The position numbers and the translations under genes were made by a program. DNA of 64,000 nt, taken from Sphingobacterium sp. CZ-2 (lineage in GTDB: Bacteria > Bacteroidota > Bacteroidia > Sphingobacteriales > Sphingobacteriaceae). The notes beneath the pieces were generated by a model. It was not told the origin of the DNA, searched no databases, and saw only the letters and a program-made list of their open reading frames with translations. Shown one piece after another: positions 34,264 through 42,214 of this stretch; within the stretch, counting starts at the first letter, position 1, and every line of letters begins with the position of its first letter. The stretch covers positions 3,100,001 through 3,164,000 of the forward strand of contig NZ_CP038159.1 of assembly GCF_004526235.1 (NCBI RefSeq), given 5' to 3'.

Positions 34264-35739
34264 TTATTTAGGATCAATTTTATCCAGCATCAATACCATA
34301 CTCTTTAGTATGCTTATTGTCTGTTCCATTTCCTGTTGGTCTAAATGACCGAATCCAACCCGCATGCCGGTTAACTTGTTGTTTTGATAGAGAATGGTCT
34401 TAGGAATGTACAAATCATGCTTTAACGCCAATTGCGAAAGCTTAAACAGATTGAGGTTTTTTTTCCAGGTCAACCAAAATGCTAGGCCAGCATTGGGGAT
34501 CTGGAAGTCTATTACATCACCCAGCTCTTCCATCAATCGGACCGCCATTTCATTTCTTCGAAACCGATAAATCTTTAAGGACTTTTTCAGATGCCTATTG
34601 ATGCTGCCATCTTCGATCAGCTCGCCTAAAGCCTGTTCCATCAATACGTCACCTTGGCGGTCGATCATGCCAAGGTGTTTCTTCAGCTCTTGAATGAGGT
34701 TTTCCGGACAGACAATAAATCCCGTTCGGAATCCTGGAGCTAGGGACTTACCGAATGAACTCACATAGATGACCATCCCGCCATCATCGTGGCTAGCCAA
34801 TGGAACCAAAGCCGGTTTGTCGTATTGAAAATCATACTCCTGATCATCTTCGACAATGATGAATCCATATTCCTTGGCCAATCGTAGCAGTTCCATCCTT
34901 CTTTTAGGGCTGAGGCTCACGGTAGTCGGATAATGCACATGCGGGCTGATATGGACCATCCGTACCTTATGGTTTTGGCAAATATGGCGTACAGCATCTA
35001 TATCCATGCCTTCTTCGTCAATTGGTACGGTCATGAGCTGGCTTCCTGATTTTTGAAAGATCATGTTTGCCGAGAAATAACTCAATTCCCCAACCAAGAC
35101 TAGGTCTCCGGGAGAAAGGATGACCTCAGAAAGGATATAAAGGCTCATTTCCATGCTCCTCGTGATCAATAGGTTACTCGGGCTGATCTTTAATCCTCTC
35201 GATTTAGCCAGATAAGAGGCCAATTGCTCCTTAAAATATTCACTGCCTTCCTGGTTATAATAGCCCATTTTCTTTCTGTTGCTACGGCGTTTGAGGTTTG
35301 CGCTATAAACCCGGGAAAGATCTTCCAATTGGGTCAATCGGATATCCGGACTGCCATCATTCCAAACATATCTGCAATTGATATATTCAAAAGGGTTGTC
35401 AAAAAGAAAGGACTTTTTGAAGGTATAGCCGGTCCTTATTGGATACTTGTTTTCAGGCTTTGGGTTGGTGCTGGTCTTTGGAAGTAGGGAAGCCACAAAA
35501 GTTCCTTTGTTCGGGAGGATATCCACCCATCCTTGGCTATGCAGCTCCTCGTAACTTGCGGTAGCCGTATTGCGGTGCATATGTAATTGTTCGGCTAATT
35601 GCCTGCTTCCTAAAAGTTTTTGTCCTGATTTGAGGATGCCACGATTGATGGCCAATACCATTTGATTCGTGACCTGAAGGTATACAGGAACATCCGAAAA
35701 TCGATCTATTTTAATAAAACTTGCGTAATTATATTCCAC
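34264..35739 (-). CDS. MocR/PdxR-type regulator (GntR helix-turn-helix fused to aminotransferase domain)
   Basis: 491 residues. Winged helix-turn-helix at about 15-80 (VPVYLQVTNQMVLAINRG, then GSRQLAEQLHMHRNTATASYEEL), a linker, then a fold-type I aminotransferase domain with ITRSMEMSLYILSEV, EDDQEYDFQYD and the PLP lysine K331 in SSFGKSLAPGFRTGF. The start is GTG at 35739 (GTGGAATAT). Proteins of this class bind PLP plus an amino compound as effector. It is divergent from the biotin operon across 76 bases that hold a 10-base inverted repeat, so it is a candidate biotin-pathway regulator; pdx or gab control is the alternative. Confidence 0.85.
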   Translation of the reverse strand: MEYNYASFIKIDRFSDVPVYLQVTNQMVLAINRGILKSGQKLLGSRQLAEQLHMHRNTATASYEELHSQGWVDILPNKGTFVASLLPKTSTNPKPENKYPIRTGYTFKKSFLFDNPFEYINCRYVWNDGSPDIRLTQLEDLSRVYSANLKRRSNRKKMGYYNQEGSEYFKEQLASYLAKSRGLKISPSNLLITRSMEMSLYILSEVILSPGDLVLVGELSYFSANMIFQKSGSQLMTVPIDEEGMDIDAVRHICQNHKVRMVHISPHVHYPTTVSLSPKRRMELLRLAKEYGFIIVEDDQEYDFQYDKPALVPLASHDDGGMVIYVSSFGKSLAPGFRTGFIVCPENLIQELKKHLGMIDRQGDVLMEQALGELIEDGSINRHLKKSLKIYRFRRNEMAVRLMEELGDVIDFQIPNAGLAFWLTWKKNLNLFKLSQLALKHDLYIPKTILYQNNKLTGMRVGFGHLDQQEMEQTISILKSMVLMLDKIDPK

Positions 35740-35783
35740 CGGACTAGCTATTATCTTTAAACTGGCACCCTATGCTGGTCCGG
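35739..35783. promoter_or_regulatory. Candidate MocR operator
   Basis: Inverted repeat CCGGACTAGC (35739-35748) and GCTGGTCCGG (35774-35783), arms matching at nine of ten positions with 25 bases between. One arm overlaps the GTG start of the regulator gene and the other lies just before the -7 box of the bio operon, the arrangement expected for joint control of both directions. Confidence 0.5.
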
Positions 35784-35791
35784 CAAGATAG

Positions 35792-35799
35792 TACTTTTG
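35792..35799 (+). promoter_or_regulatory. -7 box of the biotin operon
   Basis: TACTTTTG, an exact TAnnTTTG, 16 bases before the ATG at 35816. The leader would be about 10 bases or less. No good TTG -33 box: that place is taken by the inverted repeat. Confidence 0.6.
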
Positions 35800-35815
35800 T
35801 TGGAAATTATTTAAC

Positions 35816-36451
35816 ATGAAAACCATTCTCCAAGAAATTGTTGCTGATCCCCATCTGCATGCGGCCTGGCTTAATACGCTCTCTTTTATGGAAAATGCCG
35901 GAGCCAGAAAAATTTCGGCATGCGAACATCCCATAAAGACACAGATTATCCAACTAAAACACGCCGCTGAAGAGCATCGACATGCGTATTACCTGAAAAA
36001 ACAGCTTTCCAAATTGGAGGTGAAGGGTTTTGAGGATTATGCGGATGCAAATCTCTTGGCAGCCAGGTCTTCTAAACAGTACCTTGCCCGTTTGGATCTG
36101 TTAGCCTGTCGTTATTTGAAGGAACAATTTTCCTTGGCCGATGATGATCTTAGGTATGCTGCTTATCTTTTTGTAACCTATGCGATTGAGGTTCGGGCGG
36201 ATGAGCTTTATCCGATTTATCAGGAATTGCTGAGTGCAGCTGGATCTAAGGTGAATGTGAAATCCATTATTTTGGAGGAAGAAGGGCATTTGGAAGAGAT
36301 GATCAGTCAGTTGCAGGCTTTTGATTCGGATTGGGAAAAGCATGCGCAGGAAATCTTGAAATTGGAGAGCAGTTTATTTGAATTTTGGATCGCTGAATTA
36401 AGGAAACATATTTTTCCCGCTGTGAATGAGCATGAAGGATCTTTGGGATAA
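35816..36451 (+). CDS. Ferritin-like diiron-type protein, first gene of the biotin operon
   Basis: 211 residues, nearly all helical. Metal-ligand pattern of a four-helix diiron carboxylate protein: E26 in SFMENAGARK; E53-H-R-H56 in AAEEHRHAYYL (ExxH); E125 or E130 in YAIEVRADELY; E155-E-G-H158 in LEEEGHLEEM (ExxH). No signal peptide. The end overlaps the bioF start by 20-26 bases, so it is translationally coupled. Family name not recognised. Inference: an O2-activating or metal-handling protein serving biotin synthesis, perhaps in making the pimeloyl precursor, since no bioC, bioH, bioW or bioI is present here. Ferritin-like storage or a hydroxylase are alternatives. Confidence 0.7.
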   Translation: MKTILQEIVADPHLHAAWLNTLSFMENAGARKISACEHPIKTQIIQLKHAAEEHRHAYYLKKQLSKLEVKGFEDYADANLLAARSSKQYLARLDLLACRYLKEQFSLADDDLRYAAYLFVTYAIEVRADELYPIYQELLSAAGSKVNVKSIILEEEGHLEEMISQLQAFDSDWEKHAQEILKLESSLFEFWIAELRKHIFPAVNEHEGSLG

Positions 36452-37598
36452 ACTGGAGGTGAGAAAGAGGCTTGGTTCTTTACGTTTCTTAAAGGAAAGG
36501 GGCGAGGGGATCGACTTTTATTCGAATGATTATTTGGGACTTTCGAGGAATCTGGGTTTTAGGGAGGAGATTGTGGAGTTGGCAAGGAATAATCCGGAAG
36601 CATTGTTGGGAGCGACAGGGTCTCGGCTTATTTCAGGAACGGGAAAGAGGGTGTTGGAAGTGGAGGATTTTATTGCGGATAAGCATGGGGTGGAAAGGGC
36701 TTTGTTGTTTCCATCGGGGTATATGGCGAATGTTGGGCTTGTTTCTAGTTTGTTGGGTAGGCATGATGTGTTGATCTGTGACGAGTATATACATCGATCG
36801 GTGATCGATGGGTGGAAGATGACGAATGCGAAACGGTTGAAGTTTAGGCATAATGATGTGAGGGATTTGGAAAGGGTGCTGGGGTGTTTGGATTGCTTCG
36901 TCGTGCCTCCTCGCAATGACGCGAGGCGGAGACGTGATGACGCGGAAGGGTCGCGCGATGGCGAGGGGCGGGCTGGCAAAATATTTATTGCGATTGAATC
37001 GCTTTATTCGATGGAAGGGGATTTCGCGCCGATCGAAGAGATTGTTGAATTGGCGGAAAAATATCAGGCTCATGTGCTGTTGGATGAAGCGCATGCTTTT
37101 GCTGTATTTGGATGGGGTTTGGCGCATCAACTTCAGCTTCAAAATCGAATACTTGCGATAACTGTTACTTATGGAAAAGCCATGGGTCTTCATGGAGCCA
37201 GTATTCTTGGAAGCAAAGACCTGATTTCCCATCTCATTAATTTTGCGAGTCCTTTTATTTACAGTACTGCCCAACCAGAATTCCATGCCTTATCCATCAG
37301 GACAGCATATGATTTCATAGCCAATAATCCAGAATTGCCTATGCGCTTGTTTGAAAACATCCGATTATTCCAATCCTTGAAAACAGGTCCAGCATCTCCC
37401 ATTCAATGTTTTTTCCCAAGTGCTGCAGCCGATCTTCAGCACATTCAAAGCAAACTTTCGGAAAATGGAATCCTAACATATCCAATTTTCCCGCCCACCG
37501 TTCCAAAAGGAAAAGAAAGAATCCGGATTTGCCTTCATGCCGATCACCAAGAATCTGAGATCCGATTGATGCAGCAGCTGCTAAACGAAACGATTTAA
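36426..37598 (+). CDS. bioF: 8-amino-7-oxononanoate synthase with an in-frame repeat insertion
   Basis: PLP enzyme that condenses pimeloyl thioester with L-alanine to KAPA. 390 residues from ATG 36426 (36432 is equally possible). Family blocks: IDFYSNDYLGLS, GATGSRLISGTGK, FPSGYMANVGLVSSL, FRHNDVRDLERVL, IESLYSMEGD, LLDEAHAF, and the PLP lysine near residue 251 in TYGKAMGLHGAS. Between FRHND and ESLYS residues about 156-184 are a foreign, Arg/Asp-rich stretch: they begin CFVVPPRND, translated from the type B repeat. That site is a surface loop region in the family, so activity may be kept. Base composition changes sharply near 37,100. Confidence 0.88.
   Translation: MSMKDLWDKLEVRKRLGSLRFLKERGEGIDFYSNDYLGLSRNLGFREEIVELARNNPEALLGATGSRLISGTGKRVLEVEDFIADKHGVERALLFPSGYMANVGLVSSLLGRHDVLICDEYIHRSVIDGWKMTNAKRLKFRHNDVRDLERVLGCLDCFVVPPRNDARRRRDDAEGSRDGEGRAGKIFIAIESLYSMEGDFAPIEEIVELAEKYQAHVLLDEAHAFAVFGWGLAHQLQLQNRILAITVTYGKAMGLHGASILGSKDLISHLINFASPFIYSTAQPEFHALSIRTAYDFIANNPELPMRLFENIRLFQSLKTGPASPIQCFFPSAAADLQHIQSKLSENGILTYPIFPPTVPKGKERIRICLHADHQESEIRLMQQLLNETI
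36891..36921 (+). repeat. Type B repeat core inside bioF
   Basis: The 31-base core (GATTGCTTCGTCG... ...CGCAATGACG) is identical to the copies at 25,408 and 53,332, here in a coding sequence and in frame. A GC-rich tail to about 36,979 (including a GTGATGACGCG segment) probably belongs to the same insertion. It adds about 28 residues to BioF. Confidence 0.88.
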
Positions 37599-37599
37599 A

Positions 37600-38226
37600 A
37601 TGAACATAAAACCCAGACAATATTTTGTAACCGGTATAGGTACTGGCGTCGGAAAAACCATTTGTTCCGCGATGTTAGCCCAATTATGGCAAATGGCCTA
37701 TTGGAAGCCTATTCAATCTGGCGACCTTGAGCAGTCGGATTCCATGATGCTGAACCATTTATTAGATCATAAAATCCAGATTTTTAAGGAAAGATTTAGA
37801 CTCCATACTGCCGCATCTCCGCATCAGTCGGCATTTTTGGATGGCATCGAAATGCATTTGGAAGATTTCGAATTGCCAGACAAACAGATCGACTTATTGG
37901 CCGAAGGGGCAGGTGGATTATTTGTGCCCATCAATGATAAAGAATGTATCATCGATCTTATCAAAAAATTGGCAATTCCAGCCATTCTGGTTTGTAGGGA
38001 TTATCTAGGTGCCATAAACCATAGCCTTTTAAGCATAAAAGCCCTGGAAAACCATCAAATCCCTTTACACTATCTGGTGCTAAATGGGGAGTTCAATCCC
38101 TTTAGTAAGGAAATCCTTTTGAAACATATGCCAGAAAATTGCAGGTTGATCCAATTACCTGAAATAGAGGAGTTAAATGCAGCACATATGCAGCATGCCC
38201 TCTCCAAAATAACCATTGAAAAATAG
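37600..38226 (+). CDS. bioD: Dethiobiotin synthetase
   Basis: Closes the ureido ring of DAPA with CO2 and ATP. 208 residues. P-loop GIGTGVGKT at 12-20, then YWKPIQSG (34-41, substrate lysine), and EGAGGLFVPIND (101-112), the Mg/DAPA region. It begins 2 bases after the bioF stop. The adenine-recognition segment (LVLNGEFNP) is near 158-166. Part of the bioF-D-B-A transcript. Confidence 0.94.
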   Translation: MNIKPRQYFVTGIGTGVGKTICSAMLAQLWQMAYWKPIQSGDLEQSDSMMLNHLLDHKIQIFKERFRLHTAASPHQSAFLDGIEMHLEDFELPDKQIDLLAEGAGGLFVPINDKECIIDLIKKLAIPAILVCRDYLGAINHSLLSIKALENHQIPLHYLVLNGEFNPFSKEILLKHMPENCRLIQLPEIEELNAAHMQHALSKITIEK

Positions 38227-38244
38227 TAGTAAATAGTAGATAAA

Positions 38245-39243
38245 ATGAACAACATGAATGAAAATATGCTGAAACATGATTGGACCAAAGAAGAGTTGTT
38301 GGCCATCTATAACCGACCGTTGATGCAATTGGTTTTTGACGCAGCAACTGTACATCGGCAATGGCAAAAGCCGGATGAGGTGCAGATTTCCACCTTACTG
38401 TCCGTAAAAACTGGCGGATGTCCGGAAGACTGTTCCTATTGTGGACAGGCTGCAAGGTACCATACCGATATCAAAGTTCAGGCCTTATTGCCAACAGAGA
38501 CGGTATTGGCGCATGCCCAAAAAGCGAAGGATGCCGGTTCATCCCGTTTTTGTATGGCGGCTGCTTGGCGTGAAGTGCGCGACAACCGGGATTTCGATCG
38601 TATCATTGATATGGTCAAAGGGGTCAATGAGATGGGGTTGGAAGTTTGCTGTACTCTTGGTATGTTGACCGAGAGCCAAGCTCAAAGGTTGCAGGAGGCT
38701 GGACTTTACGCTTATAACCATAACCTGGATACTTCGGAGGAATTCTATGATGAAATCATTTCCACGCGCAAATTTGATAATCGCTTGGAAACCATAAAGC
38801 ATGTCCGTAAGGCAGGCATCACCGTCTGTTCTGGTGGGATCATCGGATTGGGCGAAACGATAGATGATCGGGTTTCCATGCTTCGTAGCTTAGCGAATAT
38901 GGAAAAGCATCCGGAATCCCTGCCGATCAATGCCTTGGCCCGGGTAGCCGGAACGCCATTGGCAGACCTCCCAAGGATTGATATCTGGGAAATGGTGCGA
39001 ACAATTGCTACCGCTAGGATCGTAATGCCAGCCTCTATGGTGCGTTTGAGTGCTGGGCGCATCGAAATGTCCGAAGTGGAACAGGCATGGTGTTTTATGG
39101 CCGGTGCAAATTCCATTTTTACCGGAGAAAGGCAAACCTTATTGGTAACTCCCAATCCTGGTGTTTCCGAAGATATGCAGATGCTGCAGAATTTGGGATT
39201 AAAAGCTATGGTATTGGATAAAAAAGAAGCATGCGCCCACTGA
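38245..39243 (+). CDS. bioB: Biotin synthase (radical SAM)
   Basis: Inserts sulfur into dethiobiotin. 332 residues. The radical-SAM cluster motif is C59-x3-C63-x2-C66 (CPEDCSYCGQAARY); the second (2Fe-2S) cluster ligands are expected at the conserved Cys residues in RFCMAAAW and EVCCTLGML and the Arg in ASMVRLSAGR; the last is clearly seen. CSGGIIGLGET is a SAM-binding block. Overlaps the bioA start by 13 bases. It depends on Fe-S supply such as the IscS/IscA pair elsewhere in the window. Confidence 0.96.
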   Translation: MNNMNENMLKHDWTKEELLAIYNRPLMQLVFDAATVHRQWQKPDEVQISTLLSVKTGGCPEDCSYCGQAARYHTDIKVQALLPTETVLAHAQKAKDAGSSRFCMAAAWREVRDNRDFDRIIDMVKGVNEMGLEVCCTLGMLTESQAQRLQEAGLYAYNHNLDTSEEFYDEIISTRKFDNRLETIKHVRKAGITVCSGGIIGLGETIDDRVSMLRSLANMEKHPESLPINALARVAGTPLADLPRIDIWEMVRTIATARIVMPASMVRLSAGRIEMSEVEQAWCFMAGANSIFTGERQTLLVTPNPGVSEDMQMLQNLGLKAMVLDKKEACAH

Positions 39244-40493
39244 TAGACCGGGATCTGGCTGTCAATTGGCATCCCTATTCCCAGATGAAATTGAGTCATC
39301 CCATCCCGATCATTAAGGGCGAAGGTGCCTATCTATTTGCTGAGAATGGACAAAGGTACTTGGATATGGTCTCTTCCTGGTGGGTCAGTATTCATGGACA
39401 TGCCAATCCAACTATTGCAAATGCGGTATTCAATCAATTGAACACCTTAGAACAGGTTATTTTTGCAGGTTTTACGCATGAACCAGCCATTTTATTATCC
39501 GAAAGGTTATTGAATCTGTTGCCTAGCAATCTGCAAAAGGTGTTTTATTCGGATAATGGCTCCACGGCGGTAGAAGTTGCCCTGAAAATGTGCCTTCAAT
39601 TAGGCAATAATCTAGGCAGGCCGAAAAATAAAATACTGGCATTTAAAGAAGGATACCACGGTGATACCTTTGGAGCCATGTCGGTCAGTGAAAGAGGACA
39701 ATGGACTGCTCCTTTTTCCGACAAACTTTTCGACGTGATCTTTATAGATCCGCCAACCTCATTGAATTTGGAACAGACGAAAGTTTTAATTCGAGAACAT
39801 GCAGCAGAAACCGCATGCCTGATCTACGAGCCGCTGATCCAAGGAGCAGGAGGGATGTTGATGCACAGTGCTGAAGATCTGTCAGATCTGATGACCTTTT
39901 GTAGATCTTTGGGTATTCTTTTGATCCAGGATGAAGTTTTTGTGGGATTTGGAAGAACAGGGACCTTATTTGCCGCCGATCAGTTAAGTGTTGCTCCGGA
40001 TGTGATGTGCTTTTCTAAGGGACTTACAGGAGGGACCATGGCCATGGGCATCACAACTTGTACGGATGAAATCTATCAAGCATTTTATTCCGATGAGAAG
40101 CAGAAAGCGCTCTTTCATGGTCATTCTTTTACAGCAAGTCCGATTGGCTGTGCAGCAGCATTGGCAAGCTTGGATATCCTATTGTCTGCTGAATGCCAAC
40201 AACAGCTGGACAGCATTCATAAAAAGCATCTTGCTTTTCTAGGTAAGTTGATGCTGCATCCGAAGGTTCAACAGCCTCGATTGATGGGAACAGTCCTGGC
40301 TTTTGAATATCATACCGCAGAACAGGATGGCTATTTCCATAGCAGGCAGGAATTCCTTTACCAAGAATTTCTAAAGAGAAATATCATCATGCGGCCTTTG
40401 GGAAATACCATTTATCTGGTGCCACCTTATTGCATAAAGGAAGAAGAGCTGGAATACGTTTATGACATGATATTGGAAGTCCTAGATTGTTGA
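39231..40493 (+). CDS. bioA: Adenosylmethionine-8-amino-7-oxononanoate aminotransferase
   Basis: Converts KAPA to DAPA using S-adenosylmethionine as amino donor, with PLP. 420 residues. The start region WHPYSQM is the BioA substrate signature. Further blocks: SSWWVSIHGHANP, YSDNGSTAVEVALKM, KEGYHGDTFGAMSVS, QDEVFVGFGRTG, and the PLP lysine K263 in CFSKGLTGG. Last gene of the operon; its final bases overlap the convergent gene 40482-41366 by 12 bases with no terminator between. Confidence 0.95.
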   Translation: MRPLIDRDLAVNWHPYSQMKLSHPIPIIKGEGAYLFAENGQRYLDMVSSWWVSIHGHANPTIANAVFNQLNTLEQVIFAGFTHEPAILLSERLLNLLPSNLQKVFYSDNGSTAVEVALKMCLQLGNNLGRPKNKILAFKEGYHGDTFGAMSVSERGQWTAPFSDKLFDVIFIDPPTSLNLEQTKVLIREHAAETACLIYEPLIQGAGGMLMHSAEDLSDLMTFCRSLGILLIQDEVFVGFGRTGTLFAADQLSVAPDVMCFSKGLTGGTMAMGITTCTDEIYQAFYSDEKQKALFHGHSFTASPIGCAAALASLDILLSAECQQQLDSIHKKHLAFLGKLMLHPKVQQPRLMGTVLAFEYHTAEQDGYFHSRQEFLYQEFLKRNIIMRPLGNTIYLVPPYCIKEEELEYVYDMILEVLDC

Positions 40494-41386: not shown

Positions 41387-42214
41387 TTAAGATTTAATAG
41401 CCGTTAGGGCATATAACATCGGGATTTTGCCTTCCAGCCCCTTTATTCTGTATTTGTCTGGACCATCCTGAACGGTATTCAAAAAACAGTTATAGGGTGA
41501 GTAATCAAATTCCTCAAAAGAGCTTATCTGTAAGTTATTTTTCAGTAGTGCCTTAAAAACATCGCTCAAGGGATGGTTCCAAGAAACAGATTTGTTTTTG
41601 ATTTCGGCATTACGGTCTGCATAGGTACCTTCGGTGGTTTCAACAATCGTTTCGACATTGAAGTAACTGTAGGCTATTTTGCTGAATTCATAGTCAAATG
41701 CCCAGACCATCGGATGAAATTCTACAAAGACTAATTTACCCCGTGGTTTTAAACAGCGATGAATAACCGCCGCCCATCTGTCCAAATCTGGAAGCCATCC
41801 GATGGTTCCATAACTGATGAACACCATATCAAATTGGCCATTGAGTTCCTCAGGGGTATTATAAACATCGGTACAGATAAATTCTGCATCTAATGCCAGG
41901 TCCTGTGCCAATTGTTGCGCAAAGAGTATGGCTGCATCGGAAAGGTCGACCCCCGTCACTTTCGCGCCCATTCGTGCCAAGGATAGACTATCCTGACCAA
42001 AATGACATTGTAAATGCAGGATGTTTTTACCTCTTACATCGCCCAGTAAATTTAATTCCACTTCCTTTAAAGAGGATTTCCCTTCCAAAAAGGAAGGCAT
42101 ATCATAAAATTCAGAAGAAGTATGGGAATTGGTTTTATCGTTCCATAGCTTTCGATTGATCGCTAGATAATCTTCATCCGGATTGTCCGGTTGGAATGCG
42201 GTATGGTCTGCCAT
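41387..42214 (-). CDS. Class I SAM-dependent methyltransferase
   Basis: 275 residues. Motif I reads NILHLQCHFGQDSLSLA (about 62-78), followed by TGVDLSDAAI (motif II, acidic residue) and FDMVFISYGTIGWLPD (motif III-IV). The LQCHFGQ variant is common in a Methyltransf_11/25 subgroup annotated only as class I methyltransferase. No substrate domain is recognisable. Sits between the SH3-like protein and the EEP-family gene, all on the reverse strand. Confidence 0.82.
   Translation of the reverse strand: MADHTAFQPDNPDEDYLAINRKLWNDKTNSHTSSEFYDMPSFLEGKSSLKEVELNLLGDVRGKNILHLQCHFGQDSLSLARMGAKVTGVDLSDAAILFAQQLAQDLALDAEFICTDVYNTPEELNGQFDMVFISYGTIGWLPDLDRWAAVIHRCLKPRGKLVFVEFHPMVWAFDYEFSKIAYSYFNVETIVETTEGTYADRNAEIKNKSVSWNHPLSDVFKALLKNNLQISSFEEFDYSPYNCFLNTVQDGPDKYRIKGLEGKIPMLYALTAIKS

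What the first reader, a model, noticed from the sequence alone, without database searches (positions are those of the whole stretch)
35816..40493. Ferritin-like diiron protein translationally coupled to bioF in a biotin operon with no pimeloyl-synthesis gene
The five-gene run is diiron protein, bioF, bioD, bioB, bioA. Seen: ligand pattern E26, E53xxH56, E125/E130, E155xxH158 on four helices, and a 20-26 base overlap with bioF. Known: BioF needs a pimeloyl thioester, which other bacteria make with BioC plus BioH-type esterases, BioW with a CoA ligase, or the P450 BioI that oxidatively cleaves acyl-ACP. Inference: a diiron oxygenase could do a BioI-like C-C cleavage or oxidise a precursor, filling the missing first step. 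It could equally serve as an iron or redox partner for BioB.
Basis: partly seen in the sequence, partly recalled or inferred. Interest (0 to 1): 0.8.

Follow-up and report, generated by a model that had tools for sequence, protein, structure and literature searches.

The report
Known biotin enzyme BioE and repressor

Summary
In detail: a 211-aa all-helical protein with ligands E26, E53xxH56, E125 and E155xxH158 overlaps bioF by 26 nt at the head of an E-F-D-B-A operon. The complete genome has no BioW or P450, and no BioC hit above half of that family's cut-off. The protein is BioE, the diiron oxygenase that cleaves C7-C8 of long-chain acyl-ACP/CoA to give pimeloyl thioester (PMC12915131). That paper's E. 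meningoseptica BioE has the same six ligands at the same residue numbers, and it already lists Sphingobacteriaceae among BioE carriers. In 151 family genomes BioE co-occurs with BioB and BioD. The 7 genomes with BioB but neither BioD nor BioE include 3 of the same genus, whose bioB loci hold no bioE, F, D or A. That argues against the BioB-partner rival. New side points: a 27-aa in-frame repeat-derived insert unique to this BioF, a bioE::bioB deletion scar in a relative, and BioL-type sites driving a TonB receptor in species without BioE.

The parts
35816..36451 (+). bioE, ferritin-like diiron oxygenase, 211 aa
   Evidence: ligands E26/E53/H56/E125/E155/H158 invariant in 100/100 sequences, same positions as published EmBioE, helical model pLDDT 93.7
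36426..37598 (+). bioF, 8-amino-7-oxononanoate synthase, overlapping bioE by 26 nt
   Evidence: Pfam and NCBIfam; overlap; bioE/bioF overlap seen in 45 of 50 other loci
36891..36974 (+). in-frame 27-aa insert in bioF containing one copy of an interspersed repeat (exact 29-mer at 36893-36921)
   Evidence: absent from every other BioF shown in the alignment; about 194 copies of the repeat core in the genome; low pLDDT at residues 163-180
37600..38226 (+). bioD, dethiobiotin synthase
   Evidence: TIGR00347 100.5 bits, cut-off 83.3
38245..39243 (+). bioB, biotin synthase
   Evidence: TIGR00433 396 bits, cut-off 225
39231..40493 (+). bioA, DAPA aminotransferase
   Evidence: TIGR00508 524 bits, cut-off 405
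34264..35739 (-). bioL, divergent MocR/GntR-aminotransferase repressor; GTG start, the ATG of relatives reads ATA here
   Evidence: GntR plus aminotransferase I/II domains; 57% identical to the Chryseobacterium indologenes gene; R46 and K331 align with published R50 and K340
35757..35801 (.). conserved bioL-bioE intergenic block: candidate BioL operator (ACTGGCACC-N9-TCCGGCAAG) with a TAnnTTTG-type -7 box (TACTTTTG) for bioE
   Evidence: conserved in 52 loci; single match in this genome at window 35761-35794

Best explanation
This is a BioE-BioL biotin locus. BioE binds long-chain acyl-ACP and/or acyl-CoA. Using O2 and an unidentified electron donor at a carboxylate-bridged diiron site, it cleaves the C7-C8 bond and gives pimeloyl-ACP/CoA. 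BioF, translated from an overlapping start, condenses this with alanine, and BioA, BioD and BioB complete biotin. The divergent MocR protein BioL represses the operon from the intergenic site and, in Elizabethkingia, senses 8-amino-7-oxononanoate. Shown here: gene order, ligand conservation, fold, absence of BioC/BioW/P450, co-occurrence, conserved regulatory site. Shown by others in homologues: catalysis, iron content, repression. Inferred: that the window's own proteins do the same.
For: Published EmBioE ligands E26, E53, H56, E125, E155, H158 have the same numbering as the window protein and are invariant in 100/100 sequences. The protein is 62% identical over residues 4-199 to that of Chryseobacterium indologenes, a species in which the paper showed the pathway's regulator at work. 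The substrate-pocket residues L22, Y117 and I124 are invariant and L131 is near-invariant. The paper already lists Sphingobacteriaceae as BioE carriers. Gene order L'-E-F-D-B-A in 46 of 100 loci, L'-E-B in 8, E-F-D-B-A in 3. No BioW or P450, BioC hits far below the cut-off, and no BioC above the cut-off in any of 151 family genomes. 78 of 79 BioE genomes have BioB (Fisher p 7e-19) and 77 of 79 have BioD (p 3e-21); these p-values ignore shared ancestry. BioL key residues are conserved, as is the intergenic site.
Against: No biochemistry on this protein. The Elizabethkingia and Chlamydia sequences themselves were not in hand, so membership rests on matching published residue numbers and on the C. 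indologenes homologue. Two of the seven residues the paper docks against CoA differ here (K46 to Q, H91 to A) and R87 is K, so CoA versus ACP preference may differ. About 20 family genomes with bioD lack BioE and BioC, so another pimeloyl source or precursor salvage exists in the family.
Confidence: 0.94

Rival explanations
1. The diiron protein is an iron store or redox/repair partner for BioB, and pimeloyl thioester comes from an undetected route.
For: Same operon; BioB is an oxygen-sensitive Fe-S enzyme; some Chitinophaga loci have bioE directly next to bioB.
Against: 26 of 104 BioB genomes have no BioE. The seven BioB genomes without BioD and BioE include three of the same genus whose bioB loci hold no bioE, F, D or A. 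The translational overlap is with bioF, not bioB. BioE alone bypasses BioC-BioH in E. coli (PMC12915131).
Confidence: 0.02
2. The protein is a BioE-like oxygenase but differs in substrate from EmBioE, for example restricted to acyl-ACP as in Chlamydia BioE (a variant within the main explanation, not exclusive of it).
For: Docked CoA-contact residues K46 and H91 of EmBioE are Q46 and A91 here.
Against: F24, R31, K32 and Q88 of the same patch are kept. EmBioF uses only pimeloyl-CoA in vivo, and this BioF is of the same linked type.
Confidence: 0.2
3. The protein belongs to the heme-oxygenase-like diiron oxidases (AetD, UndA type) rather than ferritin-like ones, with different chemistry.
For: The best Foldseek matches in the PDB are AetD chains, probability 1.00, TM 0.58-0.63.
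Against: All E-values are above 0.001 (best 0.022). The ligand set E, ExxH, E, ExxH (2 His, 4 carboxylate) is the ferritin-like pattern (my knowledge). The same ligand set in CpBioE binds about 2 Fe and is needed for biotin.
Confidence: 0.08

Closest known systems
BioE of Elizabethkingia meningoseptica / Chryseobacterium / Chlamydia psittaci (PMC12915131)
   Same: Six diiron ligands at identical EmBioE positions, acyl-pocket residues L22, Y117 and I124 invariant and L131 near-invariant, operon with bioF/D/B/A, divergent bioL
   Different: All five bio genes follow in one run here, whereas Elizabethkingia has separate bioEFD and bioBA promoters; K46 and H91 of the docked CoA patch are substituted; BioF carries a 27-aa insert
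BioL, MocR-family repressor of bioE/bioB in E. meningoseptica
   Same: GntR plus aminotransferase domains, R50 and K340 equivalents (R46, K331), divergent from bioE
   Different: Annotated start moved: ATG of relatives is ATA here, probable GTG start
BioI (cytochrome P450 of Bacillus subtilis)
   Different: Heme P450, unrelated protein; no P450 in this genome
AetD and other heme-oxygenase-like diiron enzymes
   Same: All-helical scaffold with a diiron site; best fold matches
   Different: No significant sequence or Foldseek E-value; different ligand pattern (my knowledge)

Membership tests
BioE | Diiron ligands E26, E53, H56, E125, E155, H158 (EmBioE numbering) | tested here: met
   same residues at the same positions, invariant in 100/100
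BioE | All-helical fold with ligands on four helices | tested here: met
   AlphaFold2 pLDDT 93.7, helices 12-35, 44-67, 109-141, 149-169
BioE | >40% identity over >85% of EmBioE (the paper's own search rule) | tested here: inconclusive
   EmBioE sequence not in hand; 62% over residues 4-199 to the C. indologenes protein
BioE | Linkage to or co-occurrence with bioF/D/B/A | tested here: met
   window operon; 78/79 with BioB, 77/79 with BioD; gene order
BioE | Pathway replaces BioC/BioW/BioI | tested here: met
   no BioC above cut-off, no BioW, no P450 in the genome
[quoted passage not shown] rescue of E. coli bioH mutant | not testable with these tools
   experiment
BioL | MocR architecture with HTH R50 and PLP lysine K340 | tested here: met
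BioL | Binds a palindromic promoter site at bioE | tested here: inconclusive
   conserved intergenic site with inverted arms; binding itself not testable here
BioI (P450) | Cytochrome P450 domain | tested here: not met
   no P450 match in the protein; no P450 in the genome

The most novel reading that the evidence does not exclude
A high-copy interspersed repeat has inserted in frame into bioF and been kept as an expressed 27-residue surface loop in a working enzyme, a Rickettsia-palindromic-element-like event in a free-living Bacteroidota core vitamin gene. Alternatively the insert has crippled BioF and this strain is losing biotin synthesis, as the bioE::bioB scar shows has happened in a species of the same genus.
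Probability: 0.6. Interest if true: 0.35.

Novelty: already known. Interest (0 to 1): 0.2.

Why it matters
BioE is a fourth published route to the pimeloyl precursor of biotin, and this locus is a clean, complete example with its repressor. The family survey adds evidence that BioE goes with the early steps of the pathway and not with BioB. The electron donor of BioE is still unknown; the operon here offers no candidate for it.

Tried and rejected
BioC candidates elsewhere in the genome: ten weak hits, best 83 bits against 185; the two best have full sequences that look like generic class I methyltransferases. The methyltransferase at 41387-42214 next to the operon scores 25 bits on BioC and is not BioC. 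Sequence search of the PDB with BioE gave nothing; Foldseek gave only non-significant E-values. Pfam and NCBIfam have no matching model for BioE. Fetching named Elizabethkingia or Chlamydia BioE failed: the single genome-contig scan returned only the best 80 loci. A search for further BioL sites in this genome found only the bioE site, so no co-regulated electron donor was found.

Full report
Observation. The five-gene run is real. ORF 35816-36451 encodes 211 aa with E26, E53, H56, E125, E155 and H158. bioF starts at 36426, inside the end of the first gene (26-nt overlap, or 20 nt from the next ATG), and bioD, bioB and bioA follow. The overlap is a conserved trait: bioE and bioF overlap in 45 of 50 other loci. 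Pfam and NCBIfam have no matching model for the first protein, and a sequence search of the PDB gives nothing, which is why it looks orphan from sequence alone.

What it is. A literature search found PMC12915131. It describes BioE, a diiron oxygenase that cleaves C7-C8 of long-chain acyl-ACP/CoA to a pimeloyl thioester, and its MocR repressor BioL in Elizabethkingia. The paper credits the first report of BioE to earlier work by the same team, which I could not read. The paper gives the EmBioE site as E26, E53, H56, E125, E155, H158, the same residues at the same numbers as here. The protein is 62% identical over residues 4-199 to the homologue of C. indologenes, a species in which the paper deleted bioL and saw biotin auxotrophy. 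The paper already names Sphingobacteriaceae among carriers. The closest named genome found here is Sphingobacterium mizutaii, 70%.

Fold. AlphaFold2 with 53 sequences gives pLDDT 93.7, all helices, with ligands on helices 12-35, 44-67, 109-141 and 149-169. Foldseek finds AetD, a heme-oxygenase-like diiron enzyme, first (TM 0.58-0.63), but no E-value is below 0.001. The ligand pattern is ferritin-like (my knowledge), so the scaffold class is not settled by this search.

Regulator. The divergent gene 34264-35739 has GntR and aminotransferase domains, is 57% identical to the C. indologenes gene in the same place, and keeps R46 and K331, which align to the published R50 and K340. The ATG of relatives reads ATA here, so GTG at 35739 is the likely start. 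The intergenic block AAACTGGCACC-N9-TCCGGCAAG-ATAGTACTTTTG is conserved in 52 loci outside coding sequence and occurs once in this genome. TACTTTTG fits the Bacteroidota -7 box TAnnTTTG (my knowledge).

Pathway context. The genome (3.93 Mb, one contig) has no BioW, no P450, and BioC-family hits of at most 83 bits against a cut-off of 185. No family genome of 151 passes the BioC cut-off. BioZ was not tested. Among 151 family genomes 79 have full BioE: 78 of these have BioB and 77 have BioD; shared ancestry is not corrected for. Nine genomes have BioB but no BioD, and seven of those lack BioE too. Three of the seven belong to the same genus, and at their bioB loci only bioL and bioB remain of the cluster, as expected for dethiobiotin scavengers. 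Thus BioE goes with the early steps and not with BioB. Gene order is L'-E-F-D-B-A in 46 of 100 fetched loci, L'-E-B in 8 and E-F-D-B-A in 3. In another 28, mostly Pedobacter, bioE is next to bioA, and in 13 no other bio gene was found nearby.

Side findings. bioF carries a 27-aa in-frame insert (residues about 156-182) absent from every other BioF shown in the alignment. It contains an exact copy of a repeat with about 194 copies in the genome. In 30 sampled copies almost all lie outside long ORFs, and the insert is modelled as disordered. The repeat resembles the CGTC-tagged palindromic repeats of PMC3733652 (judged from title and abstract only). One relative (G083) holds a bioE(1-52)::bioB(270-323) fusion, a deletion scar of the operon. 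In G159, G160 and G166, which lack BioE, a BioL homologue with the same type of site faces a TonB-dependent receptor.

Verdict. The rival role as BioB partner is disfavoured. Catalysis by this particular protein, its acyl-carrier preference, its electron donor and the activity of the insert-bearing BioF remain untested.

Noticed in passing
36891-36974: 27-aa in-frame insert in BioF containing an exact copy of an interspersed repeat (about 194 copies genome-wide); absent from every other BioF shown in the alignment; modelled as a disordered loop.
   Followed up: partly
11032, 25410, 53334, 58685: Four further copies of the repeat core TTGCTTCGTCGTNCCTCCTCGCAATGACG in the window, none expected by chance.
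   Followed up: partly
L174:6003-6380: Same-genus genome G083 carries bioE codons 1-52 joined in frame to bioB codons 270-323: the scar of a deletion that removed the rest of the biotin operon.
   Followed up: partly
L199, L201, L206, L208:1556-4964: In three BioE-less species of the genus a BioL homologue with the conserved operator faces a 622-aa TonB-dependent receptor; a candidate BioL-controlled receptor for biotin or a precursor. Homologues of the receptor are in all 31 genus genomes searched, including this one.
   Followed up: partly
L188:3395-7388, L197:3633-7669: Two family genomes (G021, G077) have bioB-F-D-A clusters without BioE and without BioC above the cut-off; about 20 family genomes with bioD lack BioE, so their pimeloyl source is unidentified.
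   Followed up: partly
35736-35751: The ATG start codon of bioL in relatives is ATA here; translation probably starts at the GTG four residues downstream.
   Followed up: partly
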